Below are positions 9,024-56,947 of a stretch of 57,863 nt of DNA, piece after piece. A model generated the notes under the pieces. That model made no database searches and was not told where the DNA came from. It was given only the letters and a program-made list of their open reading frames with translations. A program made the position numbers and the translations under genes. The stretch comes from Opitutales bacterium (GTDB taxonomy: Bacteria; Verrucomicrobiota; Verrucomicrobiia; Opitutales; JAJFLR01), in assembly GCA_021772565.1 (NCBI GenBank), contig JAJFLR010000075.1, forward strand, positions 1 to 57,863, written 5' to 3'. Position 1 is the stretch's first letter. Every line of letters begins with the position of its first letter.

Positions 9024-9626
9024 TTAATCTGCTGGCCAAATTTGTTCTCGATCAAGGCGGATTCCTATAACCTGACTATTAACCATAAATTTCTGTGCAA
9101 TGCTTTGAGTAAATTGATCGCGCAGTTGATCATTTTTAATAAAGTTAGGAACCAGATTTTCGATCTGGTTAGCAAATTCATTAAAGAATTCTTCAAGCCG
9201 AAATTTTGGAACAAGGAGGTTTCCGGCAAATTCGTTAGCTTCTCTTTCAATTTCATATTTACGACCACGATAGTTTTGATTCCAAACGGCATATGATTTC
9301 TGTAAACTAAAATCAGCTTTACGAGGAATGTCCTGATGTAAAAAATAATGTGCCAGTTCATGTGCAATTGTGAAACGGAGGCGGTTTAATTTCCATACAG
9401 GCCCTTTCTCCATTAGTGAATATTGTTCTGCATCGACGTAAATGCTTTTAAAGTCAGCTGATATCGCTGCCTCTATATCATATTTTAATATCAGGTCGTC
9501 GAAAGGGATTGGTTCTAATTCCAAATCGATTTCAAAGAAAGTGAATATATCGATTGGAATATGCTTTCCCTGCAATACAGGGTACTGTTGCCGTAGCTCC
9601 TCTATTTTCTTGCAGATGTGCTCCAT
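9024..9626 (-). CDS. ImmA/IrrE family metallopeptidase
   Basis: A 200-residue zinc peptidase with the HExxH motif in FTIAHELAHYFLH (about residues 86-98) and a downstream REANEFAGNLLVP that supplies the third zinc ligand (E). ImmA/IrrE enzymes cleave a partner XRE repressor to relieve repression of phage, ICE or stress genes. The partner is the XRE gene 2 bases upstream on the same strand. In other systems such pairs act as toxin-antitoxin or as regulators of mobile elements; here they lie downstream of a broken restriction-like locus, which suggests control of that block. Confidence 0.92.
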   Translation of the reverse strand: MEHICKKIEELRQQYPVLQGKHIPIDIFTFFEIDLELEPIPFDDLILKYDIEAAISADFKSIYVDAEQYSLMEKGPVWKLNRLRFTIAHELAHYFLHQDIPRKADFSLQKSYAVWNQNYRGRKYEIEREANEFAGNLLVPKFRLEEFFNEFANQIENLVPNFIKNDQLRDQFTQSIAQKFMVNSQVIGIRLDREQIWPAD

Positions 9627-9628
9627 GT

Positions 9629-9997
9629 TTATTGGTCGGGGCGGTTGAGCTTTCGGATATCCTCGATAAGTTCGGTAAGCTTTTCGTCGGTTAATTCATG
9701 ACCGCGAGCAGCCCGAAAAAATGCCGGCAATGCATTTGCCAGCATATCATTATCGGCAATATCTTTTGGGAGTTCATTTCGGTCGATAGCCGCCGCATCC
9801 ATTAATTCAAGTTTATCTGCATCATTCATCTCAAAGAAATCAGCCAACTTTTCCAATATGGCAACATCGCCCGGCGGCGGATTGATCCCACGCTCAACTT
9901 TGCTCCAATTACTCGGATCAAGCTTAACCTGCTGGCAAAAATCACGCAGCGTCAAACGCTTTTCTAATCTCAGTGCTTTTACTTTTTCGTGAAACAT
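9629..9997 (-). CDS. XRE-family transcriptional regulator
   Basis: A 122-residue protein with an N-terminal Cro/C1 helix-turn-helix (LTLRDFCQQVKLDPSNWSKV, residues about 15-34, followed by ERGINPPP). The C-terminal half is acidic and helical. It is followed after 2 bases by the ImmA peptidase gene, its likely protease. The start is supported by an AAGAGGA ribosome-binding site 5 bases before the ATG, unusual in this window, where most genes have none. An inverted repeat and a TTGACA box lie just upstream, consistent with self-repression. Confidence 0.92.
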   Translation of the reverse strand: MFHEKVKALRLEKRLTLRDFCQQVKLDPSNWSKVERGINPPPGDVAILEKLADFFEMNDADKLELMDAAAIDRNELPKDIADNDMLANALPAFFRAARGHELTDEKLTELIEDIRKLNRPDQ

Positions 9998-10069: not shown

Positions 10070-13000
10070 CTAATTCTCTAAAATCGGCTTTAAAATATAA
10101 GGGCTTTTTGTTGTAAAGCTTTTCATTCGTTTGACTATTTCACTGTTCGAGTCACTCCAGCGTTTATTGAGTTCTGTTATTACCTGATCTTTTTGAATGT
10201 TACTTATGGTATTAAACTCTTTGTTTTGCATTACTTCGGATATGTCATATTCTACAAATTGCAGGATGTCGATTTTTAGTTCTTTCATGTGGTCGGGAAA
10301 GTAGAGTTCAAAGACGAGGGCATCAATTATAGATTCAAAGATTCTTGCCTCCATTTCCATATCTTTCTCTTTTGCAAAGATGATACAGTCAGCTATCGTA
10401 GAAAATAATAACTGTAAAAGTTCTTCAGACTTAATAATTGGAATTTCTAAAATTGGCCCTTTATCAACTTGGTATGCGGTGCCTTGCATTTTACCTCTGT
10501 GCTTTAGCCAAAAGGCGGTTATTGAAGAGTTTAGTAATGCTGTAAAATACTTTAGGTTAATTCGATTAGATTTAATGATAAAAAATGTCTGTGATACATA
10601 ACAATCAAAATTAGTGTAAGTAAAAACTGGTTTTTTTGGACATTTACGCAGAGATATTATTTTTTCTCCCTGAAAGAATGATTCCTTTCTCGCTCTATGA
10701 AGACCGTAAGGTTTATTGTCAGATGTTATAATATTCACATATTTATCTAAGTGCTTTCTAAGATTAGGTTTAGACTTCATTGAGATTGTTCTTTTAAACT
10801 CTGAACTTGTATAAATGACCCATAAATCATTTTCTGAATTACCATAGTATCTTGATAAGTTTTTTGTTGTATAAAAAGGTTTTATCAATTTCAACTCATC
10901 AAAATTTAAGTTTAAACTACTTTTTTCCTCGTCTGTAAGATTAAATATTCCTGAGCCAACTGGATATCTATTATTTAATTTTTCTGCATTTTTTTTATTT
11001 AAAAAATCTTGGGGAGCAACAATTCCTTGAGCAACTTCTTTTGTTTTATCTAGGATGAAATCTCCTCTATTTTTAATAACTTTTAATACTGATTCAATTT
11101 TATTCTCAGTAAAGCCAAGACGTTTATCAAACCAGTTGTTTGGGAAGAACTCTAATTCAATGTATTGATGGGCCCCTTTTTTATTCAGTAATTCTTCTAT
11201 ATTATCTTTAGTAGATTTTTCTGAATTATTCTTACGATAATCAATTTTATAATTATCTGTTTTACATCTCTGAAGCAAATAAACCATCGTTTGAATTGAA
11301 GCACTTTCAAATATCATATAATCCCTAAAATCCAAAAACTGTCTTATTGCTGTGTTTTCAAGAACTTTATTTCTGAATTTTGAAGCTCCTTCATTAGTTA
11401 TCCAGTTATTGGTTGCTATAAATGTTGTTAGTCCGTTTTGTCTTAATAGTTCAATTGCCTTGTATCCAAACAAATACCATAAATCCATTTTACCTTGATA
11501 GCATTCCGATTCTCTTAATCCATCAAAAACACTTTTATCAGTATATTCTTTAACATACGGCGGATTTCCAATCACCACATCAAAGCCATCTTTAATATCA
11601 AACATCCATTCAGGATCAAAAAAGGAAGAAACTCCATTCTGATCATACGGATCCCAGCTTGCCAACTGTTCAGCAGATTTATTTCCCCAACCATTTTTCT
11701 TCAATTCACCTGCAATCTCATTTCTTAACTCTTCATCTCTTTTGCGGTATTTCACCTTGGTTACTTTGGTTTTTGCACCAAAGAGTTTATGCCGGATAGA
11801 TTTCAGTTCCTGTTCAAGTTTTTCAACCTCTTTTGAATTAAATATTAATTGCTCTTCTGGTTTCTCTATCCCAATCAGCGTATTTGCTGTAACAAATTTT
11901 GTCTCAAGATTAGGAAGTGGCCTTATCCCAAAATTATCTTTTTCATTATTTACCTTTTGCTCAACAACAAGAGAGATGAAAAATCTTAATTTAGAAATCT
12001 GAGTTGCAATTGGCTGAATATCCACACCATAAATACAGTGTTCTATCAAAAAAAGTTTCCGTGCATAGTCAGGATTGTTAATCGTTACATCAAAGGCTTC
12101 ATTTATCTCAAGTAAAAGCAGTTCTCTATCTTTTTTATCTCTAACAACAAACGCACCTTCGGTTTCTTTTATAGCCTTTTCCTGCTGCAAATCCTGCCAT
12201 TGTTTGTTGTTAGGATCAACTTTATGCAGAATATGCACCATCTTTTGTAGTATTCCCATTGGGAAAGCACCACTACCGCAGGCAGGGTCGAGTATTTTGC
12301 AACTGTCTAAAGAATGAATAATCTCCTTTGATAGCTCGTCATTATCTTCAAAGGGATTAATAGGCTCAAAAGAAACTAGTTGATGCAATTGAATATCTAA
12401 CTCTTTATCCTCCACATCCCATATTGAAACAGAGTTTTTAAGATGAGCAATCAGGCTTTCATCAACCATGTAGTTGACTATTTCTCTTGGAGTGTAAAAT
12501 GAACCAGTCTGTTTTCTGGCTGTTGTTTTTGTTTCGGGATTGTAACTGGCCAACAGATTTTCAAATACTTTGCCGAGAAGTTCGGGATCGAGTGCGACAT
12601 CCTCTTCAATCGGTGTATTCTCTGCGATGGTGAATTTATAAGATTTAAGGATATTGATTAACCCCTTTACCGCGGCTTCTTTAGTGCCTTTATTATTTAC
12701 TCCATAATCTGAGCTTAAATCTGTTTTTTCTTCCATACCAAAGAACAGATAATCAGGAACAATAAGGGAATGTCCCTTTGCCATATTATCGGAAAAGCCA
12801 TCAATATAAATGTTATTATCTTTGTCATCAAGACATTCAAAAAGACCACCGTTTAAAAATGGAACAACCTCATTGACCATTTCAAGGAAATCATCAGGAG
12901 CTTTAAAATGCATTTTATACCGCATCAGGTAATCAACCCCGCGATGCTTACCGTAACTTTCACTTCCCCTAAAACCTCTTTCTCTAGTGTCAATACTATC

Positions 13001-13567
13001 GGGTTTTATAGGACAGTTAAGAGTGGCAAAGAAAAGGTTCTGCAATATTGATTTATAGTAGATACTTTCTTTATTCGCTTCTTTGATTAGAGTGTTTGCA
13101 TCGTGATGCGGTGATATCTCGTTTAGAATATTATTTTGAAGCTCTTCTAAATCAAAAAACTCTTCGGGTATTAGTTTCTTTTCTTTGATAAACCAGACAA
13201 ACAGCAGACGGGTGAGCATCCGGATTACATTTTGGGCTTTGAATTCATGTTTCAGTGCTTCTAATTTATTATTGTCGTTTGACCCTGTTTCAGCAAATAA
13301 AGATTGTATAGTTGGTTCTGATGGGAAAGTGACATGTTTTATTGCCCAGAAATACCAGTTTGAAAGCTCGGAGTAGAATTTTTTACTGAGCAGGCTAACA
13401 CTAAAAACTTCCCGCCAGTATTGATAAAGTCCTTCATAGGAGTTTATGCCTTTTTTGCCTGAACGTGTAATCTTTAACTCTTCAAGTATCTTTAGATGAC
13501 CTGTGTGGGGATTGTTTATGTCAATATCACGAAGAATGGATACACTTTCCCGTCTTTTCACCTTCAC
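10070..13567 (-). CDS. Eco57I-type adenine-specific DNA methyltransferase, main part (frameshifted)
   Basis: This 1165-residue frame carries an N6-adenine methyltransferase of the type IIG/Eco57I-like class. GSFYTPREIVNYMV (near residue 355) precedes SAM motif I LDPACGSGAFPMG (near 425), and the catalytic motif IV is VIGNPPYVKEY (near 668). The C-terminal third is a probable target-recognition region. The natural N-terminus is in a different frame at 13527-14021: reading KWREGEKTGK there and joining to VSILRDIDINNPHTGHL here restores a continuous protein, which needs the removal of one base (extra T in AAGTGTA near 13550). As it stands translation of a full-length enzyme needs a frameshift. 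The upstream helicase gene is broken too. Confidence 0.85.
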   Translation of the reverse strand: MKVKRRESVSILRDIDINNPHTGHLKILEELKITRSGKKGINSYEGLYQYWREVFSVSLLSKKFYSELSNWYFWAIKHVTFPSEPTIQSLFAETGSNDNNKLEALKHEFKAQNVIRMLTRLLFVWFIKEKKLIPEEFFDLEELQNNILNEISPHHDANTLIKEANKESIYYKSILQNLFFATLNCPIKPDSIDTRERGFRGSESYGKHRGVDYLMRYKMHFKAPDDFLEMVNEVVPFLNGGLFECLDDKDNNIYIDGFSDNMAKGHSLIVPDYLFFGMEEKTDLSSDYGVNNKGTKEAAVKGLINILKSYKFTIAENTPIEEDVALDPELLGKVFENLLASYNPETKTTARKQTGSFYTPREIVNYMVDESLIAHLKNSVSIWDVEDKELDIQLHQLVSFEPINPFEDNDELSKEIIHSLDSCKILDPACGSGAFPMGILQKMVHILHKVDPNNKQWQDLQQEKAIKETEGAFVVRDKKDRELLLLEINEAFDVTINNPDYARKLFLIEHCIYGVDIQPIATQISKLRFFISLVVEQKVNNEKDNFGIRPLPNLETKFVTANTLIGIEKPEEQLIFNSKEVEKLEQELKSIRHKLFGAKTKVTKVKYRKRDEELRNEIAGELKKNGWGNKSAEQLASWDPYDQNGVSSFFDPEWMFDIKDGFDVVIGNPPYVKEYTDKSVFDGLRESECYQGKMDLWYLFGYKAIELLRQNGLTTFIATNNWITNEGASKFRNKVLENTAIRQFLDFRDYMIFESASIQTMVYLLQRCKTDNYKIDYRKNNSEKSTKDNIEELLNKKGAHQYIELEFFPNNWFDKRLGFTENKIESVLKVIKNRGDFILDKTKEVAQGIVAPQDFLNKKNAEKLNNRYPVGSGIFNLTDEEKSSLNLNFDELKLIKPFYTTKNLSRYYGNSENDLWVIYTSSEFKRTISMKSKPNLRKHLDKYVNIITSDNKPYGLHRARKESFFQGEKIISLRKCPKKPVFTYTNFDCYVSQTFFIIKSNRINLKYFTALLNSSITAFWLKHRGKMQGTAYQVDKGPILEIPIIKSEELLQLLFSTIADCIIFAKEKDMEMEARIFESIIDALVFELYFPDHMKELKIDILQFVEYDISEVMQNKEFNTISNIQKDQVITELNKRWSDSNSEIVKRMKSFTTKSPYILKPILEN

Positions 13568-14021
13568 GCCATTTCTGTTTGTATTTTAAGCGTTCTGCAT
13601 TCGCCAGAGATATGAAATTTTCATATCTAAAGACAACTACAACCGGGGTATAGTGGAATTCACGATTAAAGGCTCTAGTGATTTTCGCGAGTTGTGTGCG
13701 AGTTGGCAAGAGACAGTTTCCCCTTTTTTTAAGAGTGACACCAAAAATTAGAATCCCGTCATAATCTTTCCCTGAATTTTTGATTTCAAATATCTCTTCA
13801 CTTTTCTTGTTGTCAAAAGCGGCATCATCAACCAGCCCGAGTATATAAACATCATCCATGAGTTGATGGGCGGTATTATTATCCTTATAGGTTACCGCGA
13901 GAATGGTTTGAGCACGAGCGGGTTCTTCTGCCAAATAGTTTACCGGTAAATTTAACTGCTCAAACAGATTTTTAAGCGCCGTATAAAAGTCTGTTTCGTT
14001 TTTGAATAAATTGAGATTCAT
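13527..14021 (-). pseudogene. N-terminal part of the broken Eco57I-type methyltransferase
   Basis: A 164-residue frame that starts with ATG at 14021 and runs into the methyltransferase gene, overlapping its frame by 41 bases. Its last in-frame segment FISLANAERLKYKQKWREGE is typical of the part just before the RDID...PHTGHL stretch in this enzyme family, so I read it as the 5' end of the same gene. It holds an alpha/beta segment (DGILIFGVTLKKRG and TPVVVVFRY) of unknown function, found in the matching place in the intact enzyme at 50294. The final residues CIHSS are out-of-frame. Confidence 0.75.
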
Positions 14022-14064
14022 TTATTTATATCTGATTTGAGCGATAAGCATTTTGCATTCGATC

Positions 14065-16437
14065 TCAACTAACTATAAACCAAGTAATCAAGTCAAAGTT
14101 ATCCGGTTGGTATTTGTCGTTTGCTTTTATGTTTTGTTTAATCCGATTCGTGGCTGAGGCATCACCGGTTTTAAGTTTTGCAATCAAGTCTTTTGCTTCA
14201 TTGCCCATTCTTTTCTTCACGGCGCCATCTTCCTGTTTTTCTTCTTCTACAGCTTGAGCATTAAGCCACATTTTGATGGAATTTGATAATTTCTGTATAG
14301 TCTGCGTGTCGCCTTTTTCCACCTTATTGGCAACATGCCTTGGGTATTTTTTGTGATATGCCAATGTATCTAATACCTCTTTTTGATTAAATAATACTTG
14401 ATTTCCAGCCATATCAATGTAAATCAAATCGTAGTTCTGATATTCGTGATCAAGCAATTTTGGCGGTTTTGCAGGATATCCTAAAAGGGCGATTATCCCT
14501 TCACTACAACAGATATTTTTTTCGGCAATAAAGCCGGTGTAAACACCTTTGGGCATGGTTTTATACAAATTTTCATCCTTTTGCAATTCTTCAAGAAGGT
14601 CCTGCCTATAGTCTTCAAGCGAAAGGTTATCAAACCCAAGTCCGGATTCATGTACTTCAATTTCATCCCATGATGTCTGCATCTGCCTAAGCATCTTTTC
14701 ATTAAGTTTTTCTTCAAACTTCTCATCCGTCGCCATTTTCGAAAAAGTGTCAGAAAATTCCATATGCACTTCCGAGCCTGCCAGCTTCATCATAGCCATT
14801 CGCTCTTCAATACGCCCCTTTAAATTCAGATAGGAATTGATATTATCCGAAGGCCAGTAATTAATGCCAAATATTTTTTTATTGGGCGAGCATAAGCGGT
14901 CTATTCGCCCCATTCTCTGGATAATTCTTACCGGATTCCAATGAATGTCATAATTGATAACCATATCACAATCCTGGAGATTTTGACCTTCACTCAATGC
15001 ATCCGTAGCAATAAGAATATCGATGGGGCGCTTGATTTTTTGATAAACCTCTGGTTCGTTATCAATAACCCAATCCAGCCATTCAGAGTATGCTTGTTGT
15101 TTTGAAAGATTATCTGAACTCGGTTTAAATCGCCATTCTTTTTCCATAAACAGTTTGGTGTATGGAGTGAACCTTTCTAAAATCGGTTCAAAGCTTTTCG
15201 TTTCAGATTCAGAAGTGTCAGTTTTGGATGTGCCTCCACTTACAACGGCTATTTTATCAAAGCCGCGCGCCGTTAGCTGGTCGAATAAATAAAACGCTGT
15301 ATCTTTGTAAACGGTAAAAATAAGCGCTTTCGGATTGGCATCGTTATTGCCGACGATGCGCTTTTCATTGATTTTATTAATTAGAGAACAAAGTTTTTCA
15401 TCGCAGCTTTTTTGATTCCGGTCTCTTTTTATTTCCTGAGCAATCTCATCACTGAAGCGAATAAGATTTCTATTTAGAAGATCAAGTGCTTCTATGTCCT
15501 TTTTTAAATCTTTTTTTAAATTGTCCAGGTTGCCTGCTTTATCAATATCTTCAAGACTCACTTTCCTTTTTTTTCCAAGGGTAAAATCATCAGCTAATTC
15601 TTCAAATTCATCATCATTAAACAACTCCGGGTCAATTATGTCGTTTATGTAATATTTTTCTTTGTGATTTTCATAACGGTTAATTCTATCAAGCGCTGTC
15701 TGGTGGTGTTCTGAAATTTTTTTTATAGTTGAGTGAAATGAACACCAGGAGGATTCAAGTCGTTTGACAAGTAGTATATAGAGCATTTTGACAAGAAACC
15801 GATCGCGTTGTTTTTCATCATGCATTTTATCTACATCTTCAATTTGCTCGATATAAAATGTTGGCTGATAACCGGAGAGTAATGGGGGGAAGTGATCAAA
15901 CAGTTCTTCAAAACTGTCAAAGTTACCAATTCGTTTGGGTGACACAAAGATGTTTTCCGGTTTTTCCTTTTCAGGAAAGTGAAGACCTGTTTTCTGTTTC
16001 TCAATCATCAATCTTGTCCGGGATACGGTAAGGGAATCCGTAAGCTTGAAAAAAGCAGCCGGTAATTTTTTGATAAAATCACCAATTCTCGGATTATCTT
16101 CCTCACGCCATTCATTAAACGCACGTTGCGAATATCTAAAAGTGTAATCGATATTTTTAATACCAAGGCTTTCGTTAAATCCATCGACTCGGCCTTGTTT
16201 AATAAGCTTAAACTGATTCCTTATATCAATTAGGGTGTTGTTTATCGGTGTAGCGGAAAGCATTAAAACCTTCACATCTTCATTTTGCTTTAATATCTCA
16301 TTTATCAGAAATTTATATCTTTGTGATTTGCTGTTTCTTAAATTATGGCTTTCATCAATGACAAATAATTTTGGCTGATCGTTTTTGAAAAATTTATCTG
16401 CGGTGTCATTATATTTTTCCATTCTTTCCGTGTGCAT
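14065..16437 (-). CDS. SNF2-type helicase, C-terminal main part (5' end lost by frameshift)
   Basis: A 790-residue frame with the later helicase motifs of an SF2/SNF2 protein: the DEAH-like box VIDESHNLRN (near residue 26), motif III MLSATPINN (near 59), and motifs V-VI IATDALSEGQNLQD and IQRMGRIDRL in the second RecA domain. The Walker A motif is absent here because it lies in the upstream frame 16517-17092. The coding frame continues upstream of the ATG to about 16530, where a run of eight A residues in the CPKK region shifts the frame. Removing one A joins ILICPKK to LHYNWHRYLKHQN. It pairs with the methyltransferase 43 bases downstream, as in the intact copy at 46950. Confidence 0.85.
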   Translation of the reverse strand: MHTERMEKYNDTADKFFKNDQPKLFVIDESHNLRNSKSQRYKFLINEILKQNEDVKVLMLSATPINNTLIDIRNQFKLIKQGRVDGFNESLGIKNIDYTFRYSQRAFNEWREEDNPRIGDFIKKLPAAFFKLTDSLTVSRTRLMIEKQKTGLHFPEKEKPENIFVSPKRIGNFDSFEELFDHFPPLLSGYQPTFYIEQIEDVDKMHDEKQRDRFLVKMLYILLVKRLESSWCSFHSTIKKISEHHQTALDRINRYENHKEKYYINDIIDPELFNDDEFEELADDFTLGKKRKVSLEDIDKAGNLDNLKKDLKKDIEALDLLNRNLIRFSDEIAQEIKRDRNQKSCDEKLCSLINKINEKRIVGNNDANPKALIFTVYKDTAFYLFDQLTARGFDKIAVVSGGTSKTDTSESETKSFEPILERFTPYTKLFMEKEWRFKPSSDNLSKQQAYSEWLDWVIDNEPEVYQKIKRPIDILIATDALSEGQNLQDCDMVINYDIHWNPVRIIQRMGRIDRLCSPNKKIFGINYWPSDNINSYLNLKGRIEERMAMMKLAGSEVHMEFSDTFSKMATDEKFEEKLNEKMLRQMQTSWDEIEVHESGLGFDNLSLEDYRQDLLEELQKDENLYKTMPKGVYTGFIAEKNICCSEGIIALLGYPAKPPKLLDHEYQNYDLIYIDMAGNQVLFNQKEVLDTLAYHKKYPRHVANKVEKGDTQTIQKLSNSIKMWLNAQAVEEEKQEDGAVKKRMGNEAKDLIAKLKTGDASATNRIKQNIKANDKYQPDNFDLITWFIVS

Positions 16438-16516
16438 GTCCGTGTGAAAACGAATGAAATATTCAAACTGGTCTTTTTCAAATTTAGAGTTCTGATGTTT
16501 TAAATAACGATGCCAG

Positions 16517-17092
16517 TTATAATGAAGTTTTTTTTGGACAGATTAAAATTATTTGTCGTCCCTGAAGTTGAAAAAATTTCATAACAGCCAATGCGCTCCA
16601 AGTTTTTCCAAGACCAACAGCATCAGCAAGAATTGCGCCATCATATTTTTGCAGCATTTTGATTAAGCTCAAAACGCCCTTCTGCTGAAAATCATATAGT
16701 GAGTTATATATGGTCGTATTCTCCAGTCTGCCAACCTGCCGGTTAAACTCCGGGTTTTCCTGCTCTGTTAAAATCTGGTTTCCAAAAAGCTCAAAAAGCA
16801 CCTTGTAATAGAGCTGTTCAGGGGTATATCGATTAAATATTTTTTCAATTTCTTCTATTAAGTATTTTTTAAAAGGTTTTGTATGCTTGTTTCCATTTTC
16901 ATCAATTATTGTTTTTTCCCTGTGTGCTTGTTTCTTATTCCACAATTCATCGAACCATTCAGCAAGTTCAATGTATTGATTATTATTTCCGGTTTCGGCA
17001 ATATTAAGCTCAACGTTATTTGTTTGTTTAAGACCAATTCCTGCCTCTGTAAGGTTAGAACTTCCGGTGATGAAATAACTTGTGCCTTTCAT
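16517..17092 (-). pseudogene. Middle fragment of the broken PLD-SNF2 helicase (Walker A part)
   Basis: A 191-residue frame holding the second half of a phospholipase-D-like motif (ITGSSNLTEAGIG, residues 8-20) and the helicase Walker A motif (LADAVGLGKTWSALAV). It ends at CPKKTSL because of a frameshift in an eight-A run near 16535. Its 5' end joins the frame 17055-17456 after a one-base shift in a five-A run near 17090. Fused with both neighbours it would make a protein of about 1,130 residues, close to the 1,113 of the intact homologue at 46950. Confidence 0.8.
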
Positions 17093-17456
17093 CTTTTTCA
17101 GGGTTAAATAGATAGACTTTTGCGTGACAGAAATTCGGTTCCAAAGTTTTTGCTAAAACATTATCCTGTTTTAAAAAATCAACTGCTTCTTGTGCTAGGT
17201 TACTTAGTTTTAATGCCGCATCAACTGTAATATTCTCATTTAACAAATCAATGCTTCTATCATTAATCAGATCTACATTAACGATGTCACCAAGAATGAA
17301 CTTAAAGGACTTAATTTCTTTATTTACCTGCTTAGCAAAGTAAGCTAAAGCCCCTATTGTGAAATAACCTGTAACAATGCTAAAATTACCCAATTCAGTA
17401 TATCGAGTTATCCACTCGCTAACTTTTAGGTTTTCATTTTCATTGTCTAAAATCAT
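17055..17456 (-). pseudogene. N-terminal fragment of the broken PLD-SNF2 helicase
   Basis: A 133-residue frame with the N-terminal phospholipase-D-like region: SIVTGYFTIGALAYFAKQV and the first half-motif CHAKVYLFNPEKD. The correct reading then jumps by one base into 16517-17092, most simply by removing one A from the five-A run in the Pro-Glu-Lys codons; the last residues RHKLFHHRKF are out-of-frame. The start at 17456 has upstream only 45 bases before the end of the permease gene. Translation from this start would give only the isolated PLD piece. Confidence 0.8.
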
Positions 17457-45971: not shown

Positions 45972-46202
45972 ATGATTGAAATAGAAGAAATTTGCTCGCC
46001 TGAATGGGCTGAATGGTATCGAATGACACCTGCCGAACGTTGGATGGAAAGTGCAAAATTATGGAATCATTATATATCAATAGGAGGTTCGCTTGACCCC
46101 GAACCCGATACACAAAGCCCTTTCTTTGATCCGGAGTTGCAAAGTGAAGTCGCTTCTGATGGGCGGTCAGGCATGCGTGTTATACGGCGCAGCGGAGTTT
46201 AG
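45972..46202 (+). CDS. Small protein paired with a nucleotidyltransferase (TA-like module 2)
   Basis: A 76-residue protein: MTPAERWMESAKLWNHYISI, then GSLDPEPDTQSPFFDPE and a C-terminal GMRVIRRSGV. Proteins of this pattern precede nucleotidyltransferase genes elsewhere. The downstream gene begins within this one in another frame (overlap 110 bases). The layout repeats that of the module at 22667, although the two small proteins share only a loose W...E.R...E pattern. Function unknown; possibly antitoxin-like. Confidence 0.82.
   Translation: MIEIEEICSPEWAEWYRMTPAERWMESAKLWNHYISIGGSLDPEPDTQSPFFDPELQSEVASDGRSGMRVIRRSGV
46081..46087 (+). promoter_or_regulatory. Internal ribosome-binding site for the module 2 nucleotidyltransferase
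   Basis: TAGGAGG lies inside the small upstream gene, 5 bases before the TTG at 46093. It is one of the few good Shine-Dalgarno sequences in the window and supports the TTG start and translation coupled to the upstream gene. Confidence 0.75.
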
Positions 46203-46845
46203 TCGTGATTTGGACTTGGCGATTCTAACCGATAAAAATAATTTTAAGAATTTCCAGAATGCATTAAATGTGCTTCAAGCGAGTCCGATAGCTATCCCGC
46301 AATTTGATAAAAAGTATCTTGAGCTGGGTTTAGCCATTCATTTTCGCTGCAAACATCCAGATGTAAATAATCTAAGGATTGATATCATGAGCAAAATGCG
46401 TGGAGTCGATGCATTTGAATTTTTATGGAAACGCAGAACAACTTTTTCTTTAGGAAATGATAATCCGTTAGACGTGCTTTCACTGCCGGATTTGGTAAAA
46501 GCAAAAAAAACGCAAAGAGAAAAGGATTGGCCAATGATATCGCGATTAATTGAAGTTAATTATTTTGAAAATCGTGATTCACCGAATGACGAACAATTGG
46601 AATTTTGGTTTACGGAAATGCGGACGCCTTCGATATTAATTGAATTAGCATCTCTTTTTCCCGATCATTGTAATAAATTTTTATCAACTAGACCATTATT
46701 GATATTTGCGTTAGATAACAATAATATTAAATTATCTGATGAACTGGATAAAGAAAGAAAATCTGAAATTGAAGCTGATCAAATTTACTGGAAACCACTT
46801 AAAAAGAAATTAATTGAATTAAAATCTCAGAGATTTAAAAAATAG
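46093..46845 (+). CDS. Nucleotidyltransferase fold protein (TA-like module 2)
   Basis: A 250-residue nucleotidyltransferase: LLMGGQACVLYGAAEFSRDL followed by DLAILTD is the GG..Y.....RDxD pattern, and LRIDIMSKMRGVDAFEFLW follows. The TTG start is supported by an internal TAGGAGG. The extra C-terminal part of about 100 residues is not found in module 1. In its genome context the pair precedes a large restriction-like block by 104 bases. Substrate unknown. Confidence 0.9.
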   Translation: MTPNPIHKALSLIRSCKVKSLLMGGQACVLYGAAEFSRDLDLAILTDKNNFKNFQNALNVLQASPIAIPQFDKKYLELGLAIHFRCKHPDVNNLRIDIMSKMRGVDAFEFLWKRRTTFSLGNDNPLDVLSLPDLVKAKKTQREKDWPMISRLIEVNYFENRDSPNDEQLEFWFTEMRTPSILIELASLFPDHCNKFLSTRPLLIFALDNNNIKLSDELDKERKSEIEADQIYWKPLKKKLIELKSQRFKK

Positions 46846-46949
46846 CACTTACATTATTTTTGCTATCTGAGATAGATAACTTGCAAAGGTAATGATGGGA
46901 ATGTAGTCGAAGAAGTTTAAATAGCGATAATTACATATGGTAAATAAAT

Positions 46950-49900
46950 ATGCCTAGAATTTTCGATAATATTGAGAATCATTTAGTAGATGCGTTAAAC
47001 CAGTCTCTTGAAGTATCTTGTCGTTCAGACTTTTGTGTTGGTTATTTTAATCTGCGTGGCTGGAAAGAAGTTGGAGATCACATCGATCATTGGAGTGGTG
47101 AGGAGAATAATCGCTGTCGACTTTTAATTGGGATGCAAAAGCTGCCACAAGAACTTATTAGGGATTTCTTTTCTCTTAAAAGAGAAGATATGATTGATAA
47201 TAAATTAGCTGTCGAAATACGCAATAAACTTGCCGAAGAATTTAAAGAACAATTAACCATTGGTATTCCAACTGACCGAGATGAAATAGGTTTACGAAAA
47301 CTATCAAAGCAAATAAAAGACAGGAAAGTTGTCGTAAAACTTTTTCTTGCTCATTCACTTCACGCCAAGCTCTATTTGCTTTTTCGCGATGACAAAATCA
47401 ATCCGGTTACCGGTTATCTTGGAAGCAGCAATCTAACTTTGGCCGGTCTTTCCAAGCAAGGTGAATTAAATGTTGATGTTCTCGACCACGATGCAACTGA
47501 AAAACTGGCGAAATGGTTTGAGGAACGCTGGAATGATAAATGGTGTATCGATATATCGAAAGAATTAGCTGAAATAATCGATACTTCCTGGGCGGCCGAA
47601 AGATTGGTCTCGCCTTATCATGTCTATTTAAAAATGGCCTATCATCTCTCTCAGGAAGCTATTGCCGGCATTACGCAGTTTAAGGTATCAAAAGAGTTTG
47701 AAAAGCAATTATTTGAATTTCAGCAAAAGGCAGTATTAATTGCTGCACGCCATTTACATAAACGAGGCGGCGTAGTTATTGGAGATGTGGTAGGACTGGG
47801 AAAAACATTTACCGCAACCGCGTTAGCTAGAATTTTTGAAGATGATTTTTTTCTCGAAACTTTGATTATCTGCCCAAAGAACCTTTGTAAAATGTGGGAA
47901 GATTATGCGCATAAGTATCGATTAAGAGCTAAAGTCTTATCTTATTCTTTGACCTTAAAAAAATTGCCTAATTTACGTCGTTACAGATTACTGATTTTAG
48001 ATGAGAGCCACAATCTGAGAAACCGTGAGGGAAAGCGGTATAAAGCTATTCAGGAATATATTCAATTGAATGACAGCAAAGTTATTCTTCTTTCCGCAAC
48101 ACCTTACAATAAATCATTTTTGGATCTATCCGCCCAATTACGTTTGTTTGTCGATGAAGCAACCGACATTGGTATCAGTCCGGAATCCTACATATCGGGT
48201 CTTGGCGGCAGGGTTGAATTTTCAGCAAGACATCAGGTCGGCATTCGCACGATTGCCGCATTTGAAAAGAGTTCTTATTCTGACGACTGGCGAGAGTTGA
48301 TGCGTTTGTATTTGGTCCGGCGTACTCGAAGTTTTATTAAAGGGAATTATGCGAAAACAGACTCGAAAAACAAACGAGAATTTCTCGAATATCCAGATGG
48401 CACGCGTTCCTATTTTCCTGATCGCATTCCTAAAAAAGTAGCATACCAATTTGATGTCGATGATCCTGACGATCAATATGCCCGGCTTTATTCCGAAGAT
48501 GTAGTTGACTTGATTAATGCGCTAAACTTGCCCCGTTATGGCTTGGGCAATTATCTCGATAAGAATTCACCGATTGTCCCAACTAAAAAGGAAACAGTTG
48601 TTATTGAAAATTTATCACGGGCCGGGAAACGACTAAAGGGCTTTAGCCGCACAAATCTCTTTAAGCGTTTGGAAAGTAGCGGTTATTCGTTTCTACTATC
48701 GATTCGACGGCAAATCCTGCGAAATTATATTTTCGTATATGCAATCGACGGCAATCACCATCTTCCTGTCGGCACGCAGGAGGCCAATGTATTAGATGCG
48801 ATTATAGAACAGGATATTGATACTGAATCATCTTTTAGTGAAAGCTTGTCCGATTCAATTTTAGATGCCGATGCTTTCTACGAAATAGCGGAAAATTTAT
48901 ATAAGTTGTTCTCAAATAAATATCGCAATCGTTTTGACTGGATAAACAGCGAGTTGTTTGAGCAATCTCTGAAGAAAGAGCTGATTGGCGACAACCATAA
49001 TCTCCTGCAAATCCTCAAGACAGGGAAAGACTGGAGTGCTGACTCAGACAGGCAATTAAATGCGCTTTATGATCTTTTAACGCAAAAACATAAAGATGAA
49101 AAAGTGCTTCTCTTTACTCAGTATGCTGATACGGCAAACTACCTGGCGCAGGAGTTACAAAAGCGTGGCGTAACACAATTAAAATGTGTAACCGGCGATC
49201 ACAATGATCCGACTTCGGTCGCTTATCAATTTAGTCCGGCCAGCAATGAACAGCATGGTATTGTTGGCACAGTAAATGAGTTGCGAGTATTGATTACAAC
49301 GGATGTATTAAGCGAAGGGCAAAACCTTCAGGACGGGCATATTATTATTAACTATGATTTACCGTGGGCGATTATCCGTCTGATTCAAAGAGCAGGCAGG
49401 ATTGATCGTATTGGCCAGAAATCGGCAGAAATTATCTGTTATTCATTTTTGCCGGAAGACGGTATTGAAAAAATAATTAATTTAAGAGGACGGTTGTCGA
49501 TAAGAATCTGTGAAAATGCCGAAGTGGTCGGAGCAGACGAAACATTTTTTGAAGGTGATCCGGTAAATATCCGCGACCTGTATAACGAAAAGTCCGGTAT
49601 TCTTGACGAGGATGATACGGAAATCGATTTGGCATCATACGCATATCAGATATGGAAAAATGCAATTGATGCTGATGCTAAATATAAAAAAATTATACCG
49701 GAAATGCCGAATGTTATTTATGGGACGCGAGCCATTGAGGCCGATGAAAATCGAGAAGCGGGTGTTATCGTTTATACTAAGACCGCAGATGAAAATGATG
49801 CTTTGGCTTGGCTGGATGAGCAGGGAAATTTAGTAACCCAGTCTCAATTTGCGATTTTGCAAGCAGCACGCTGCTTGCCGGATACCGAGCCGCAACGCCG

Positions 49901-50291
49901 TCTCGCCGATCATCACAAATTAGTGGAAAGCGGGCTCGAATTTATTAAAGAGAACGAAAGTAAAATAGGCGGCCAGTTAGGCCGGAAAACCAGTGGTCGT
50001 TACCGGGTATATTCGCGATTATCCAGCTTTTACAGCGAAAATCAAGAGACATTGTTTGTGAACGATAGCTTAAAAAAAGCGATAGAAGACATTTATAATT
50101 ATCCGCTGAGACAATATGCCAGAGATACTTTAACCCGCCAGTTAAAATCGGGAATTAACGATTATGACCTGGCCGATATGGTTGTTGCATTGCGTGAAGA
50201 GGACAAACTGAGCATTGTTGATAAGGAAGAATCAATGCATAAAGAACCGCGAATCATCTGTTCAATGGGATTAAGCAAAAGAGTAGATTAG
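46950..50291 (+). CDS. PLD-domain SNF2 family helicase of a restriction-like system
   Basis: A 1113-residue protein. Residues 1 to about 190 are a phospholipase-D-like domain with half-motif HAKLYLLFRDD near 137 and GYLGSSNLTLAGL near 155. Next comes an SF2/SNF2 helicase: Walker A GDVVGLGKTFTA near 277, DESH box LLILDESHNLRN near 350, motif III LLSATPYN near 380, and motifs V-VI ITTDVLSEGQNLQDG and IQRAGRIDRIGQ near 812. The PLD part could be a nuclease or DNA-binding domain. Two bases separate it from the methyltransferase gene. This is the intact relative of the broken gene at 14065-17456, although the sequences are divergent. Confidence 0.92.
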   Translation: MPRIFDNIENHLVDALNQSLEVSCRSDFCVGYFNLRGWKEVGDHIDHWSGEENNRCRLLIGMQKLPQELIRDFFSLKREDMIDNKLAVEIRNKLAEEFKEQLTIGIPTDRDEIGLRKLSKQIKDRKVVVKLFLAHSLHAKLYLLFRDDKINPVTGYLGSSNLTLAGLSKQGELNVDVLDHDATEKLAKWFEERWNDKWCIDISKELAEIIDTSWAAERLVSPYHVYLKMAYHLSQEAIAGITQFKVSKEFEKQLFEFQQKAVLIAARHLHKRGGVVIGDVVGLGKTFTATALARIFEDDFFLETLIICPKNLCKMWEDYAHKYRLRAKVLSYSLTLKKLPNLRRYRLLILDESHNLRNREGKRYKAIQEYIQLNDSKVILLSATPYNKSFLDLSAQLRLFVDEATDIGISPESYISGLGGRVEFSARHQVGIRTIAAFEKSSYSDDWRELMRLYLVRRTRSFIKGNYAKTDSKNKREFLEYPDGTRSYFPDRIPKKVAYQFDVDDPDDQYARLYSEDVVDLINALNLPRYGLGNYLDKNSPIVPTKKETVVIENLSRAGKRLKGFSRTNLFKRLESSGYSFLLSIRRQILRNYIFVYAIDGNHHLPVGTQEANVLDAIIEQDIDTESSFSESLSDSILDADAFYEIAENLYKLFSNKYRNRFDWINSELFEQSLKKELIGDNHNLLQILKTGKDWSADSDRQLNALYDLLTQKHKDEKVLLFTQYADTANYLAQELQKRGVTQLKCVTGDHNDPTSVAYQFSPASNEQHGIVGTVNELRVLITTDVLSEGQNLQDGHIIINYDLPWAIIRLIQRAGRIDRIGQKSAEIICYSFLPEDGIEKIINLRGRLSIRICENAEVVGADETFFEGDPVNIRDLYNEKSGILDEDDTEIDLASYAYQIWKNAIDADAKYKKIIPEMPNVIYGTRAIEADENREAGVIVYTKTADENDALAWLDEQGNLVTQSQFAILQAARCLPDTEPQRRLADHHKLVESGLEFIKENESKIGGQLGRKTSGRYRVYSRLSSFYSENQETLFVNDSLKKAIEDIYNYPLRQYARDTLTRQLKSGINDYDLADMVVALREEDKLSIVDKEESMHKEPRIICSMGLSKRVD

Positions 50292-50293
50292 AT

Positions 50294-53200
50294 ATGTTAA
50301 TCAACCGCGCAAAATTTGACCAACGCATCAAAAAGTTTCAATTCACTGAACTCTTTAATGATCTCGGCTGGGATCATGTCGATAATGAACAGACCATAAC
50401 TGTCAATGATCAAATCTTTGAATTAAATGCGGTAGCTCAAAAGCGAGATTTTATGATATTTGTCTGTTCGCCCCAAAACAGTGGAAAAATCCCGGATGCA
50501 ACGGTGCGCAAAAAAATCGACCGCAGTATCACCAAACTTTTTTTTGAGCATTTGATTATTTTTATCAATGAGGAAAAGGCTGCTCAAATCTGGCATTTAA
50601 GTGTTCGGGAACCCAATAAACCTATTATAACCCGGGAGACAACTTATTATACAAATCAAAGACCGGAATTACTTTATCAGCGATTGCGCGGACTATTATT
50701 TACTATTGATGAAGAGGAAAATATCGGGTTGGTCGATGTCACACAACGGATATCCAAGAGCTTTAATACTAACGCCGATAAAGTCACTAAACAATTCTAT
50801 GATAAATTCAAAAAAGAACATGGCGCATTTCTCGAATTCATCAAAGGCATAAGCGATGTGGTGAACAAGGAATGGTATGCTTCGTTAATGCTCAATCGTC
50901 TCATGTTTATCTACTTTATCCAGAAAAAAGGATTTTTGGATAACAATAAAAACTACTTACAGGATAAACTGAAAATTACGCAGCAAAAGAAAGGTAAAAA
51001 TAAATTCTATTCCTTTTATCGTGATTTTTTATTAGTCTTGTTCCACAAAGGCTTAGGGTCGTCGGCAAGAGGTGAGGCGCTGCTGCAGGAGATCGGAGAT
51101 GTGCCGTATCTGAACGGCGGATTGTTCGATATTCATCCTCTTGAAAAGAGACATGAAAATATTCAGGTTGACGATGATGCTTTCGACAGAGTCTTTGAGT
51201 TTTTCGACAAGTTCCAATGGCATCTCGATACTCGAATTACCGCTTCAGGAAATGACATCAATCCCGATGTGATCGGCTACATATTTGAGAAATATATCAA
51301 TGATCGCGCATCCATGGGTGCTTATTACACTAAAGAGGACATTACCGAATACATTGGAAAAAACACCATCATTCCCCATCTGTTTGATGCGGCAAAAAAG
51401 GAATGCGCCAATGCTTTTCGTGAAGAGAGTGGACTATGGAAAATACTGCAGGATAATCCGGATCGTTACATTTATGATGCCATGCGTAAAGGCACGGAAT
51501 TAGACCTGCCTGCGGAAATTGAAGCCGGAATAGATACTGCCAAAGCAGACTTGCTCGAACGCCGCAAAGCATGGAACAAACCAGCGCCGTCAGAATACGC
51601 ATTGCCGACAGAAATCTGGCGGGAAGTGGTCGAACGAAGAAAGCGTTATTTTGAGATCAAAGCCAAAATAACCAATGGCACTATTAATGATATCAATGAT
51701 TTTATTACCTACAACCTCGACATTCGTCAGTTTGCCCAAGATGCCGTGCAACAATACGAAGGCGCCGATTTCATCAATGCTTTTTACAAAGCAATTACCG
51801 CTGTAACCATTCTCGATCCTACTTGTGGCTCGGGCGCTTTTTTATTCGCCGCCTTGAATATTTTAGAGCCGCTTTACGAAGCCTGTATTCAGCGAATGCA
51901 GGAATTTGTAAGTGAAGACGATAACAAAGACGGAAAACGCTTCTCTCAATTTCGCAAAATATTGGATGATACCAAACGTCATCCTAACCTCAAATACTAC
52001 ATCTACAAAACGATTATTTTAAACAATCTTTATGGTGTTGATATCATGAATGAGGCGGTCGAGATCGCCAAGCTGCGCCTGTTTTTAAAACTGGTGGCAG
52101 AAGTCGATAACAGCAACGATTTAGAACCGCTGCCCGATATCGATTTTAATATCCGCGCCGGTAATACACTGGTCGGATTTGCCAGTTATAAAAAATTACA
52201 GGAGTCGGCAGTAATTGAAATGGATTTTGACAACGATGCTGAAAAGTGTCGCGAGGAAGCAGAAAAAGTCGGCACGGCATATTCGCGGTTTAAAGATGTT
52301 CAATTAATAGAAGATCAGAGTAGCGCCGACTTTCGTATGGCTAAGCACAATTTGCAGGAACGTCTGAGCAGTTTAAACGAAAAGCTGAATGTATATCTCT
52401 CAAAATCTTATTTACAAGGTAGGCAAATGGATAAAAAGAAATATGCAGCGTGGAAACTCTCCCACCAGCCTTTTCACTGGTTTGCTGAGTTTTATGAGAT
52501 CATACATAACAGAGGCGGGTTTGATGTGATTATTGGGAATCCTCCGTATGTGGAGTATTCTAAGATCAAAAAATCATATAAGCTACTTGACTACATAACA
52601 TTGGAGTGTGGAAACCTTCACAATTTCATTTTAGAAAAGTGTCTTGGGCTGAAGAATCAAAAAGGAGCGATTGGGTTGATAGTACCTCTCTCACTAATTA
52701 GTACTCCCCGAATGAATAATGCCATAGAACTACTTAAAATTCAAAGTAACAGAAGCTATATTTCAAGTTTTGAATGTCGCCCTGGAAAGTTGTTCGTCGG
52801 AGCTGATATTAGACTTTGTATAGTTTTAGTGCTTCCAAGTAGAAGCGATAGGAATGAACTCTATACCACAAAATTATATAAATTTCCTACATTGCAACGG
52901 GAGATTCTCTTTTCGATTTTAGAGTATTGTAATTTGATGAAAATAAATCATCATTTTAATTTAATTCCAAAAATAAGCAGTGAAAGAGAGCTGTCGATTT
53001 ACAACAAACTCTTCGGTGAAAAAAATAAGATTATTTCCTATGTACATGAAAATGGAACATCGAAAATGCTGTATTATTCGTATGGATTTAGATATTGGGC
53101 AAAAGTGCTAACAAAACCGACATTCTTTGAAGGACAAAACGCTTCAGTGTCTACAGGGGAAAAACACTTATCGTTACAAGAAGAAGTTAATAAGAACCTA

Positions 53201-53563
53201 ATTGGCGCTGTGTTATCTTCATCATTATTCTATTGGTATTATGTCGTCACGAGCGACGCTCACAATTTCACTAAACATATTATATATGGTTTTCCTCTTG
53301 ATCTATTTTGTGCGCCATCTATTGAAGAACTCTTTTTGCAATATCAAGATGACTTAGAAAAAAATTCAAAGCTGAAAACAGTAACTTACAAAACAACTGG
53401 AAAAATTACCTATAGAGAGTACTATGTAAAGCGTTCTAAAGGACTGATAGACAAACTGGACTTGCTTATAGGGAAACACTATGCGATTAGCAATGAAGAA
53501 ATCGATTTCATTTTAAATTACGATATAAAATTTCGATTGAGTGATGACCTATCAAGCATATGA
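50294..53563 (+). CDS. Eco57I-type adenine-specific DNA methyltransferase with a likely swapped C-terminus
   Basis: A 1089-residue protein. GAYYTKEDITEYIGKNTI near residue 337 precedes motif I LDPTCGSGAFLFAALN near 507; motif IV is IIGNPPYVEYSKIKK near 747. The N-terminal 150 residues are similar in position to the split domain at 13527. The C-terminal part after NPPY (52560-53563) is clearly more AT-rich than the N-terminal two thirds and presumably contains the target-recognition domain. Just after the stop there is an orphan copy of the C-terminus in the base composition of the upstream part. Works with the helicase upstream; the methyltransferase likely marks self DNA and could cut unmodified DNA. 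Confidence 0.92.
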   Translation: MLINRAKFDQRIKKFQFTELFNDLGWDHVDNEQTITVNDQIFELNAVAQKRDFMIFVCSPQNSGKIPDATVRKKIDRSITKLFFEHLIIFINEEKAAQIWHLSVREPNKPIITRETTYYTNQRPELLYQRLRGLLFTIDEEENIGLVDVTQRISKSFNTNADKVTKQFYDKFKKEHGAFLEFIKGISDVVNKEWYASLMLNRLMFIYFIQKKGFLDNNKNYLQDKLKITQQKKGKNKFYSFYRDFLLVLFHKGLGSSARGEALLQEIGDVPYLNGGLFDIHPLEKRHENIQVDDDAFDRVFEFFDKFQWHLDTRITASGNDINPDVIGYIFEKYINDRASMGAYYTKEDITEYIGKNTIIPHLFDAAKKECANAFREESGLWKILQDNPDRYIYDAMRKGTELDLPAEIEAGIDTAKADLLERRKAWNKPAPSEYALPTEIWREVVERRKRYFEIKAKITNGTINDINDFITYNLDIRQFAQDAVQQYEGADFINAFYKAITAVTILDPTCGSGAFLFAALNILEPLYEACIQRMQEFVSEDDNKDGKRFSQFRKILDDTKRHPNLKYYIYKTIILNNLYGVDIMNEAVEIAKLRLFLKLVAEVDNSNDLEPLPDIDFNIRAGNTLVGFASYKKLQESAVIEMDFDNDAEKCREEAEKVGTAYSRFKDVQLIEDQSSADFRMAKHNLQERLSSLNEKLNVYLSKSYLQGRQMDKKKYAAWKLSHQPFHWFAEFYEIIHNRGGFDVIIGNPPYVEYSKIKKSYKLLDYITLECGNLHNFILEKCLGLKNQKGAIGLIVPLSLISTPRMNNAIELLKIQSNRSYISSFECRPGKLFVGADIRLCIVLVLPSRSDRNELYTTKLYKFPTLQREILFSILEYCNLMKINHHFNLIPKISSERELSIYNKLFGEKNKIISYVHENGTSKMLYYSYGFRYWAKVLTKPTFFEGQNASVSTGEKHLSLQEEVNKNLIGAVLSSSLFYWYYVVTSDAHNFTKHIIYGFPLDLFCAPSIEELFLQYQDDLEKNSKLKTVTYKTTGKITYREYYVKRSKGLIDKLDLLIGKHYAISNEEIDFILNYDIKFRLSDDLSSI

Positions 53564-53580
53564 AAACCTAACATATAATA

Positions 53581-53685
53581 GACAAAATTGATAAATTACT
53601 ATGCCAAGCTTACAATTTCACCGAAGAAGAACTCGACTTCATCATCAACTACGACATTAAATACCGGATGGGAAAAGAACTTTAA
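53581..53685 (+). pseudogene. Orphan C-terminal end of an older methyltransferase allele
   Basis: The plus-strand frame from 53581 reads DKIDKLLCQAYNFTEEELDF and then IINYDIKYRMGKEL with a stop at 53685. The end of the preceding gene reads IDKLDLLIGKHYAISNEEID and FILNYDIKFRLSDDL. The two are clearly homologous over about 34 codons. The orphan has no start codon near its 5' border and the GC-richer codon use of the N-terminal part of that gene, so it looks like the old 3' end left behind when the current C-terminal half was inserted. Confidence 0.88.
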
Positions 53686-53795
53686 AATTACGATAATAAA
53701 TAAACACGAATGTATTTAGTGTATGTCGATAAGAGTCGGGGATCTTGGAACTGAGAACATCCTGACAAGTTATTAATCCTGGAAATAGTTTATAA

Positions 53796-56939: not shown

Positions 56940-56947
56940 GAGGTTTA

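What the first reader, a model, noticed from the sequence alone, without database searches (positions are those of the whole stretch)
10070..17456. Second copy of the helicase-methyltransferase system is broken by three single-base frameshifts
The helicase is divided into three frames and the methyltransferase into two. All three joins are repaired by removing one base: an A in a five-A run near 17090, an A in an eight-A run near 16535, and a T in AAGTGTA near 13550. No other long gene in the window shows a frameshift. This suggests true decay or, for the homopolymer runs, phase-variable switching of a costly restriction system; errors of long-read sequencing are the third option.
Basis: seen in the sequence. 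Interest (0 to 1): 0.55.

Follow-up and report, generated by a model that had tools for sequence, protein, structure and literature searches.

The report
Recently broken bacterial phage-defence gene pair
A two-gene bacterial restriction system that relatives carry whole is cut by three reading-frame breaks here; it looks like the recent, ordinary loss of a defence system, although a sequencing error is not ruled out.

Summary
A helicase gene (14065-17456, minus strand) lies in three frames and the adenine methyltransferase gene beside it (10070-14021) in two. The pieces abut on single-frame homologues from other bacteria. No homologue that spans a join is broken there: 25 loci at join 1, 26 at join 2, 33 at join 3. 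One join was misplaced: the window keeps matching relatives in the upstream frame beyond the five-A run, so that break lies at about 17073-17081, in no run. Only one of three breaks is in a homopolymer (eight A), and that run is not conserved. Phase variation is unlikely; programmed frameshifting is unsupported. A frame scan of 342 kb more of the genome gave two clear breaks and four unresolved sites, so three in 7.4 kb is a local excess (P about 1e-5 to 1e-2 by what is counted). The pieces show no other decay, so the breaks are very recent or a local assembly error. Another related helicase in the genome has an in-frame stop. Best reading: recent inactivation of a horizontally acquired HKD nuclease-Snf2 helicase plus Eco57I-type methyltransferase system. 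"Second copy" is loose: the intact pair in the window is only a distant homologue.

The parts
17055..17456 (-). Helicase piece 1 (133 aa): N-terminal nuclease-like region with the HxK motif HAKVYLF
   Evidence: aligns to residues 1-128 of the intact L023 helicase
17073..17081 (-).
   Evidence: interval set by hand from the alignment
16517..17092 (-). Helicase piece 2 (191 aa): GSSNLT motif, start of the Snf2 ATPase with Walker A GLGKT
   Evidence: aligns to residues 127-309 of L023
16528..16535 (-). Join 2: frame break in a run of eight A (coding strand); relatives have at most seven there
14065..16437 (-). Helicase piece 3 (790 aa): DESH box, Helicase_C, motif QRMGRIDR
   Evidence: aligns to residues 308-1132 of L023, its frame being open upstream of the ATG
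13527..14021 (-). Methyltransferase piece 1 (164 aa): N-terminal domain
   Evidence: aligns to residues 1-160 of L023
13541..13547 (-). Join 3: frame break (net gain of one base against relatives), not in a homopolymer
   Evidence: interval set by hand from the alignment
10070..13567 (-). Methyltransferase piece 2 (1165 aa): Eco57I / N6_Mtase domain (DPACGSGAF, NPPY) and TaqI-like specificity domain
9629..9997 (-). Helix-turn-helix regulator directly downstream; not part of the conserved core
   Evidence: Pfam HTH_31; no tblastn match (E 1e-5) in the 38 homologous loci
9024..9626 (-). ImmA/IrrE-type peptidase gene (Peptidase_M78); not part of the conserved core
   Evidence: no match in the 38 homologous loci
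46950..50291 (+). First system in the window: intact HKD-Snf2 helicase (1113 aa), distant homologue
50294..53563 (+). First system in the window: intact Eco57I-type methyltransferase (1089 aa)
   Evidence: full-length match to PADLOC PDLC03628

Best explanation
The locus is a horizontally acquired two-gene restriction-modification system that has very recently been inactivated. When whole, the first gene encodes an HKD (phospholipase D-type) nuclease fused to a Snf2-type helicase/translocase, the second an Eco57I-type N6-adenine methyltransferase with its own target-recognition region. The likely mechanism (inferred from domains and from characterised relatives) is that the methyltransferase recognises and marks a DNA site, and unmarked sites recruit the helicase, which uses ATP to move on DNA and lets the nuclease cut. 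Here two frame breaks cut the helicase and one the methyltransferase: the HKD motif half-sites, Walker A and DESH box fall on separate pieces, so restriction should be off; the methyltransferase catalytic domain stays on one long piece without its 160-residue N-terminal domain, so residual methylation is possible but unproven. The breaks are shown in the sequence; that they exist in the living cell, and that relaxed selection let them stay, is inferred.
For: Pieces abut on intact homologues; no homologue spanning a join is broken there. Break clustering: three in 7.4 kb against two clear and four unresolved sites in the other 325.7 kb of coding sequence scanned; Poisson P 1.5e-5 with two others, 3.8e-4 with six, 0.006 if all 16 flagged sites are counted. 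Error at homopolymers is not general: 84 A/T runs of 8 or more lie in coding segments, and of the nine flagged break sites checked only join 2 has such a run within 60 nt. A related HKD-type helicase on contig C2 is cut by an in-frame TAA, while homologues read through, so two of the four such helicases I recognised in this genome are broken. Homologues elsewhere also show broken methyltransferases (clear in 4 of 38 loci: L024, L029, L054, L059) and one broken helicase (L056, of 29 loci with a helicase match). [quoted passage not shown]
Against: No reads were available. Apart from the breaks the genes look fresh: no in-frame stop in 2443 codons, departures at invariant columns 9 of 384 (helicase; 11 homologues 0 to 14) and 6 of 338 (methyltransferase; 10 homologues 1 to 15), which fits a sequencing error as well as a young pseudogene. 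All three breaks are gains of one base, whereas bacterial decay is usually held to favour deletions (recalled), and insertions are typical of some long-read errors (recalled). The locus was picked after the fact, so the P values are optimistic. The broken relatives are themselves draft genomes.
Confidence: 0.58

Rival explanations
1. Sequencing or assembly error: the gene pair is whole in the organism and the three added bases come from a locally poor stretch of the assembly.
For: All other marks of decay are missing; all three breaks are single-base gains; two clear frame breaks elsewhere in the genome sample show that breaks occur in this assembly.
Against: Clustering in two adjacent genes, none found in the other about 43 kb of coding sequence of the same contig; only one of three breaks in a homopolymer, and three other runs of eight in the same two genes are in frame.
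Confidence: 0.31
2. Phase variation: slipped-strand change at the homopolymer switches the system on and off.
For: Join 2 lies in a run of eight A; restriction systems are known to phase-vary, including type IIG (PMC4889913, listing with start of abstract) and frameshifted gonococcal systems (PMC6789123, passages).
Against: Joins 1 and 3 are not in repeats, so a change at the run alone would not restore either gene; the run is eight where PhasomeIt used a poly-A/T cut-off of 10 (PMC6321876, passages); no listed relative has eight or more A there: 2 of the 26 loci have seven, the rest six or fewer.
Confidence: 0.05
3. Expression across the breaks by transcriptional slippage or ribosomal frameshifting, so that some full-length protein is made.
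For: Slippage on runs of nine A or T, and rescue of endosymbiont genes at long A runs, is reported (PMC5009743, passages).
Against: Only join 2 is in a run, of eight; the homologues are in a single frame and need no shift.
Confidence: 0.03
4. The methyltransferase survives as a separate, working orphan enzyme (piece 10070-13567) after loss of restriction.
For: Catalytic motifs and specificity region are all on the long piece, which has a GTG start.
Against: It lacks the N-terminal domain that the homologues keep; no promoter or expression evidence was sought. PMC4176335 (passages) argues that solitary genes seldom arise by decay of complete systems.
Confidence: 0.03

Closest known systems
PADLOC candidate family C3a139 (HKD+Snf2) with a type IIG-like methyltransferase
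   Same: Best PADLOC match of both larger helicase pieces and of the intact helicase at 46950-50291; the methyltransferase matches REase_MTase_IIG models
   Different: Broken into frames here; the PADLOC entry is a candidate family without tested mechanism as far as its label shows
Type-2 BREX-related (BR) systems (PMC12839542, passages)
   Same: Helicase with an N-terminal HKD nuclease and a Swi2/Snf2 core, beside an N6 methyltransferase
   Different: BR systems are centred on a DUF499 ATPase and carry DUF3780; no DUF499 match in this genome, DUF3780 search inconclusive
CglI / NgoAVII restriction systems (PMC4267653, passages)
   Same: PLD-type nuclease coupled to an SF2 ATPase, with a methyltransferase
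   Different: There three genes, nuclease with a B3 domain separate from the ATPase, and a C5-cytosine methyltransferase; here nuclease and helicase are one chain and the enzyme is of the N6-adenine type
DISARM (DrmD helicase, DrmMI methyltransferase)
   Same: Partial matches to DrmD and DrmMI models
   Different: DrmD score 125.7 bits against a cut-off of 610; no DISARM core was identified here

Membership tests
HKD-Snf2 helicase plus N6-methyltransferase restriction system (PADLOC C3a139 type) | HKD/PLD nuclease motif fused to a Snf2 helicase | tested here: met
   HAKVYLF and GSSNLT at homologous places, Walker A, DESH, QRxGRxDR; C3a139 E 5.8e-44 and 1.4e-22 for two pieces. Pfam found no PLD domain in the N-terminal piece itself, so the nuclease label rests on motif and homology
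HKD-Snf2 helicase plus N6-methyltransferase restriction system (PADLOC C3a139 type) | Adjacent Eco57I-type adenine methyltransferase | tested here: met
   PF07669 118.2 bits, PF02384 61.9 bits, TaqI_C 36.9 bits
HKD-Snf2 helicase plus N6-methyltransferase restriction system (PADLOC C3a139 type) | Both genes in one open frame | tested here: not met
   Three and two frames: a broken member
Type-2 BR system | DUF499 ATPase | tested here: not met
   No PF04465 match in the genome; the control rang in one named genome; the genome is a draft of 95% completeness
Type-2 BR system | Standalone DUF3780 | tested here: inconclusive
   No match, but no control rang either
DISARM | DrmD above the curated cut-off | tested here: not met
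   125.7 bits against 610
CglI/NgoAVII | Separate PLD-B3 nuclease, Z1 ATPase and C5 methyltransferase | tested here: not met
   One-chain helicase and N6-type methyltransferase
Phase-variable (contingency) locus | Breaks in hypermutable repeats conserved at the site | tested here: not met
   One of three joins in a run, of eight A, not conserved in length
Phase-variable (contingency) locus | Mixed tract lengths in a population | not testable with these tools
   No reads
Pseudogene by relaxed selection | Further decay beyond the first lesion (stops, loss of invariant residues) | tested here: inconclusive
   Three frame breaks, but no stop and no excess of departures at invariant columns

The most novel reading that the evidence does not exclude
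Inactivation of this family of restriction systems is driven by selection against its cost: three lesions gathered in both genes within less than about 1% neutral divergence, a related helicase in the same genome is also broken, and several distant bacteria have broken the methyltransferase gene while the helicase stays in one frame, which would mean that the helicase-nuclease is harmless without the methyltransferase and that switching off starts there.
Probability: 0.15. Interest if true: 0.4.

Novelty: new member of a known kind. Interest (0 to 1): 0.2.

Why it matters
Broken restriction systems are common knowledge, so the case itself changes little. It is useful as a clean young example: homologues fix where the breaks lie, and a genome-wide frame scan separates a local loss from general assembly noise. 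It also corrects an over-reading of homopolymer runs as switches. If the breaks are real, the organism has recently given up one of several related systems.

Tried and rejected
Programmed frameshifting: rejected because homologues read in one frame. Homopolymer reading of join 1: rejected from the alignment. Cross-assembly of the two systems in the window: rejected because they are too dissimilar and the 2373-base helicase piece has no other long DNA match in the genome (one further match of 49 bases). HTH and ImmA/IrrE genes as part of the core: no support in 38 homologous loci. Relatives from the same order: one search covered 132 genomes; apart from the window's own genome the listed matches were partial and mostly in the helicase motifs, so the useful homologues came from the species collection. 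The organism was not identified. Five of the 16 flagged frame switches outside the locus (start codon 11-13 nt inside the previous gene) were taken as ordinary overlaps without looking at their products; of the 11 looked at, two were clear breaks (confirmed by matching Pfam halves), five were judged by eye to be ordinary neighbouring genes, four stayed unresolved. L027's helicase match begins only at residue 280, so its N-terminal part is missing or unmatched; L050, L052 and L054 start late because their contig starts there. The list at each join holds only homologues whose single-frame match spans it; those left out were checked for where their match begins, and none of them shows a break at the join. 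L060's methyltransferase match spans join 3 but fell under the listing's score limit.
Full report
What is there. On the minus strand at 10070-17456 lie five consecutive open frames of 133, 191 and 790 aa, then 164 and 1165 aa. The first three belong to one helicase, the last two to one adenine methyltransferase. Pfam finds Helicase_C and SNF2-related domains in the helicase pieces, and Eco57I, N6_Mtase and a TaqI-like specificity domain in the methyltransferase. PADLOC's best match for the two larger helicase pieces is C3a139, 'HKD+Snf2'. The HKD-type half motifs HAKVYLF and GSSNLT, the Walker A GLGKT, the DESH box and QRMGRIDR are all present, but spread over three pieces; the methyltransferase motifs DPACGSGAF and NPPY are on the long piece.

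Homologues. A scan of the species collection with the long methyltransferase piece gave 38 loci, from Desulfobacterota, Bacteroidota, Spirochaetes and others by their record titles. In L023 (Desulfamplus magnetovallimortis), L025 and L026 both genes are single open frames of about 1130 and 1280-1320 aa. The window's pieces fall on the L023 proteins end to end: helicase residues 1-128, 127-309, 308-1132; methyltransferase 1-160 and from 141 on. Identity is 68-85% for the helicase pieces and 58-69% for the methyltransferase pieces against L023, much more than to the other pair in the window, which shares only 31-48% in patches of the helicase and 27% over 282 residues of the methyltransferase. 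So the locus is not a duplicate of the other pair but an independently acquired member of the same broad kind.

The three joins. Of the 38 loci, 29 have a helicase match; 25 span join 1 and 26 span join 2 in one frame, and 33 are listed as spanning join 3. The loci left out begin after the join, or score below the list's limit, and none has a break at a join. The alignment moves join 1: after the five-A run at 17094-17098 the window still reads PEKDERHK in the upstream frame, as relatives do (PEQDDRHK, PEKDDRHK), and only then shifts, at about 17073-17081, where there is no run. Join 3 lies at about 13541-13547, also without a run. Join 2 is in a run of eight A at 16528-16535. The relatives encode a conserved Pro-Lys-Lys there with at most seven A (seven in L030 and L039), many with AAG codons that interrupt the run. 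At each join the window has one base more than the relatives' frame needs.

Phase variation and recoding. Two of three joins are outside repeats, so no change at the run alone could restore either gene: the helicase has a second break and the methyltransferase has no run at all. PhasomeIt used cut-offs of seven for poly-G/C and ten for poly-A/T in Campylobacter (PMC6321876, passages). Slippage on runs of nine A or T and rescue of endosymbiont genes at long A runs are described (PMC5009743, passages), but would reach only join 2. Three other runs of eight in the same two genes are in frame.

Error or real. I trained a codon model on long open frames of the window (without this locus) and of 20 stretches, 342 kb, of the same draft genome, and let it choose frames. 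It made 51 direct same-strand switches; 32 fit an ordinary gene junction, 19 did not: the three joins and 16 elsewhere. Of those 16 I looked at 11. Two are clear breaks: a hybrid histidine kinase (L073 near 5111) whose halves carry HisKA and HATPase_c, and an asparaginase (L063 near 6894) with both halves matching Asparaginase_2, the second just under its cut-off. Five I judged by eye to be ordinary neighbouring genes, four are unresolved, and five more with short overlaps were not looked at. The scan notices 158 of 200 simulated losses of one base. With two, six or all 16 sites counted as breaks elsewhere, three or more in these 7.4 kb has a Poisson probability of 1.5e-5, 3.8e-4 or 0.006, without correction for the locus having been picked because it is broken. 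Of nine flagged sites checked, only join 2 has a run of eight or more nearby, against 84 A/T runs of eight or more in coding segments. A uniform error rate is therefore a poor explanation; a locally poor stretch of assembly is not excluded.

Age. The pieces hold no in-frame stop in 2443 codons. If they had drifted neutrally by 1% per site about 3.2 stops would be expected (probability of none 0.04); at 0.2% about 0.65. At columns invariant in all other aligned homologues the window departs at 9 of 384 (helicase; the 11 homologues 0 to 14) and 6 of 338 (methyltransferase; the 10 others 1 to 15, one of which, L024, carries a stop). So the genes were under selection until very recently, or still are.

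Wider pattern. On contig C2 of the same genome a related helicase is cut by an in-frame TAA; ten homologues match the part before it and many the part after it in the same frame. Of the four HKD-type helicases I recognised in this genome (two in the window, one on C39, one on C2) two are broken. Among the 38 homologous loci the methyltransferase is clearly broken in four (L024 in-frame stop; L029 frame change and stop; L054 frame change at a repeat-rich insert; L059 frame change) and the helicase in one (L056); a stop in the L054 helicase and one in the L056 methyltransferase lie in weakly aligned stretches and are not counted; stops in L037, L039 and L058 lie at the end of the genes. In L024, L029 and L059 the helicase is in one frame while the methyltransferase is broken.

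Mechanism when whole (inferred). HKD nuclease and Snf2 translocase in one chain beside an N6 methyltransferase with a variable recognition region (31-42% identity to homologues in the best matches of the last 385 residues) suggest an ATP-dependent restriction enzyme that cuts unmarked sites. CglI and NgoAVII show that a PLD nuclease can be coupled to an SF2 ATPase for cleavage (PMC4267653, passages), and type-2 BR systems pair an HKD-Snf2 helicase with an N6 methyltransferase (PMC12839542, passages), but the DUF499 ATPase of those is not found here. In the window's present state restriction should be off.

Verdict. A real and well-defined observation with one misplaced join; most likely the recent, ordinary loss of a restriction system. 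Reads are needed to exclude error. [quoted passage not shown] I made no claim of absence from the literature for this kind of decay.

Noticed in passing
L045:1771-2481 and L050:2067-2834: In two Bacteroidota-type MAGs the homologous methyltransferase gene carries, at the same place, an in-frame insert with a Y1 (IS200-like) transposase domain flanked by repeated short hairpin-like sequences; the frame stays open through the insert. It looks like a REP-type mobile unit read in frame inside a host enzyme; one literature search (listing only) showed nothing that names this.
   Followed up: partly
L054:4006-4058: A repeat-rich insert (runs of C and G) at the same methyltransferase position (about residues 519-525 of L023) that changes the frame: the site may be a favoured insertion point.
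   Followed up: no
L027:4379-5524, L029:4410-5543, L043:4657-5538, L051:4613-5527: Between helicase and methyltransferase the relatives carry different extra genes: DUF1016/YhcG nuclease (L027, L029), KilA-N (L043), Abi_2 (L051). The window has none. It looks like a cargo slot inside the system.
   Followed up: partly
L025:9411-10793, L026:9487-11187, L043:9300-11030: An SMC/RecN-like ATPase gene follows the methyltransferase; L027:9379-11106 has a similar start but was not scanned. In the window an HTH gene and an ImmA/IrrE gene stand there instead.
   Followed up: partly
L062:5786-8887 (contig C2 of the window's genome): A related HKD-type helicase is cut by an in-frame TAA at L062:6359-6361 and is followed by a DUF4391 gene.
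   Followed up: yes
L073 near 5111; L063 near 6894; L079 near 10225 and 10860: Other frame breaks in the window's genome: a hybrid histidine kinase and an asparaginase (clear), and two unresolved sites in one stretch without Pfam match.
   Followed up: partly
window 46093-57649: A defence cluster: intact HKD-Snf2 helicase and methyltransferase, a further type IIG-like methyltransferase at 53796-56939 and a small gene after it.
   Followed up: no
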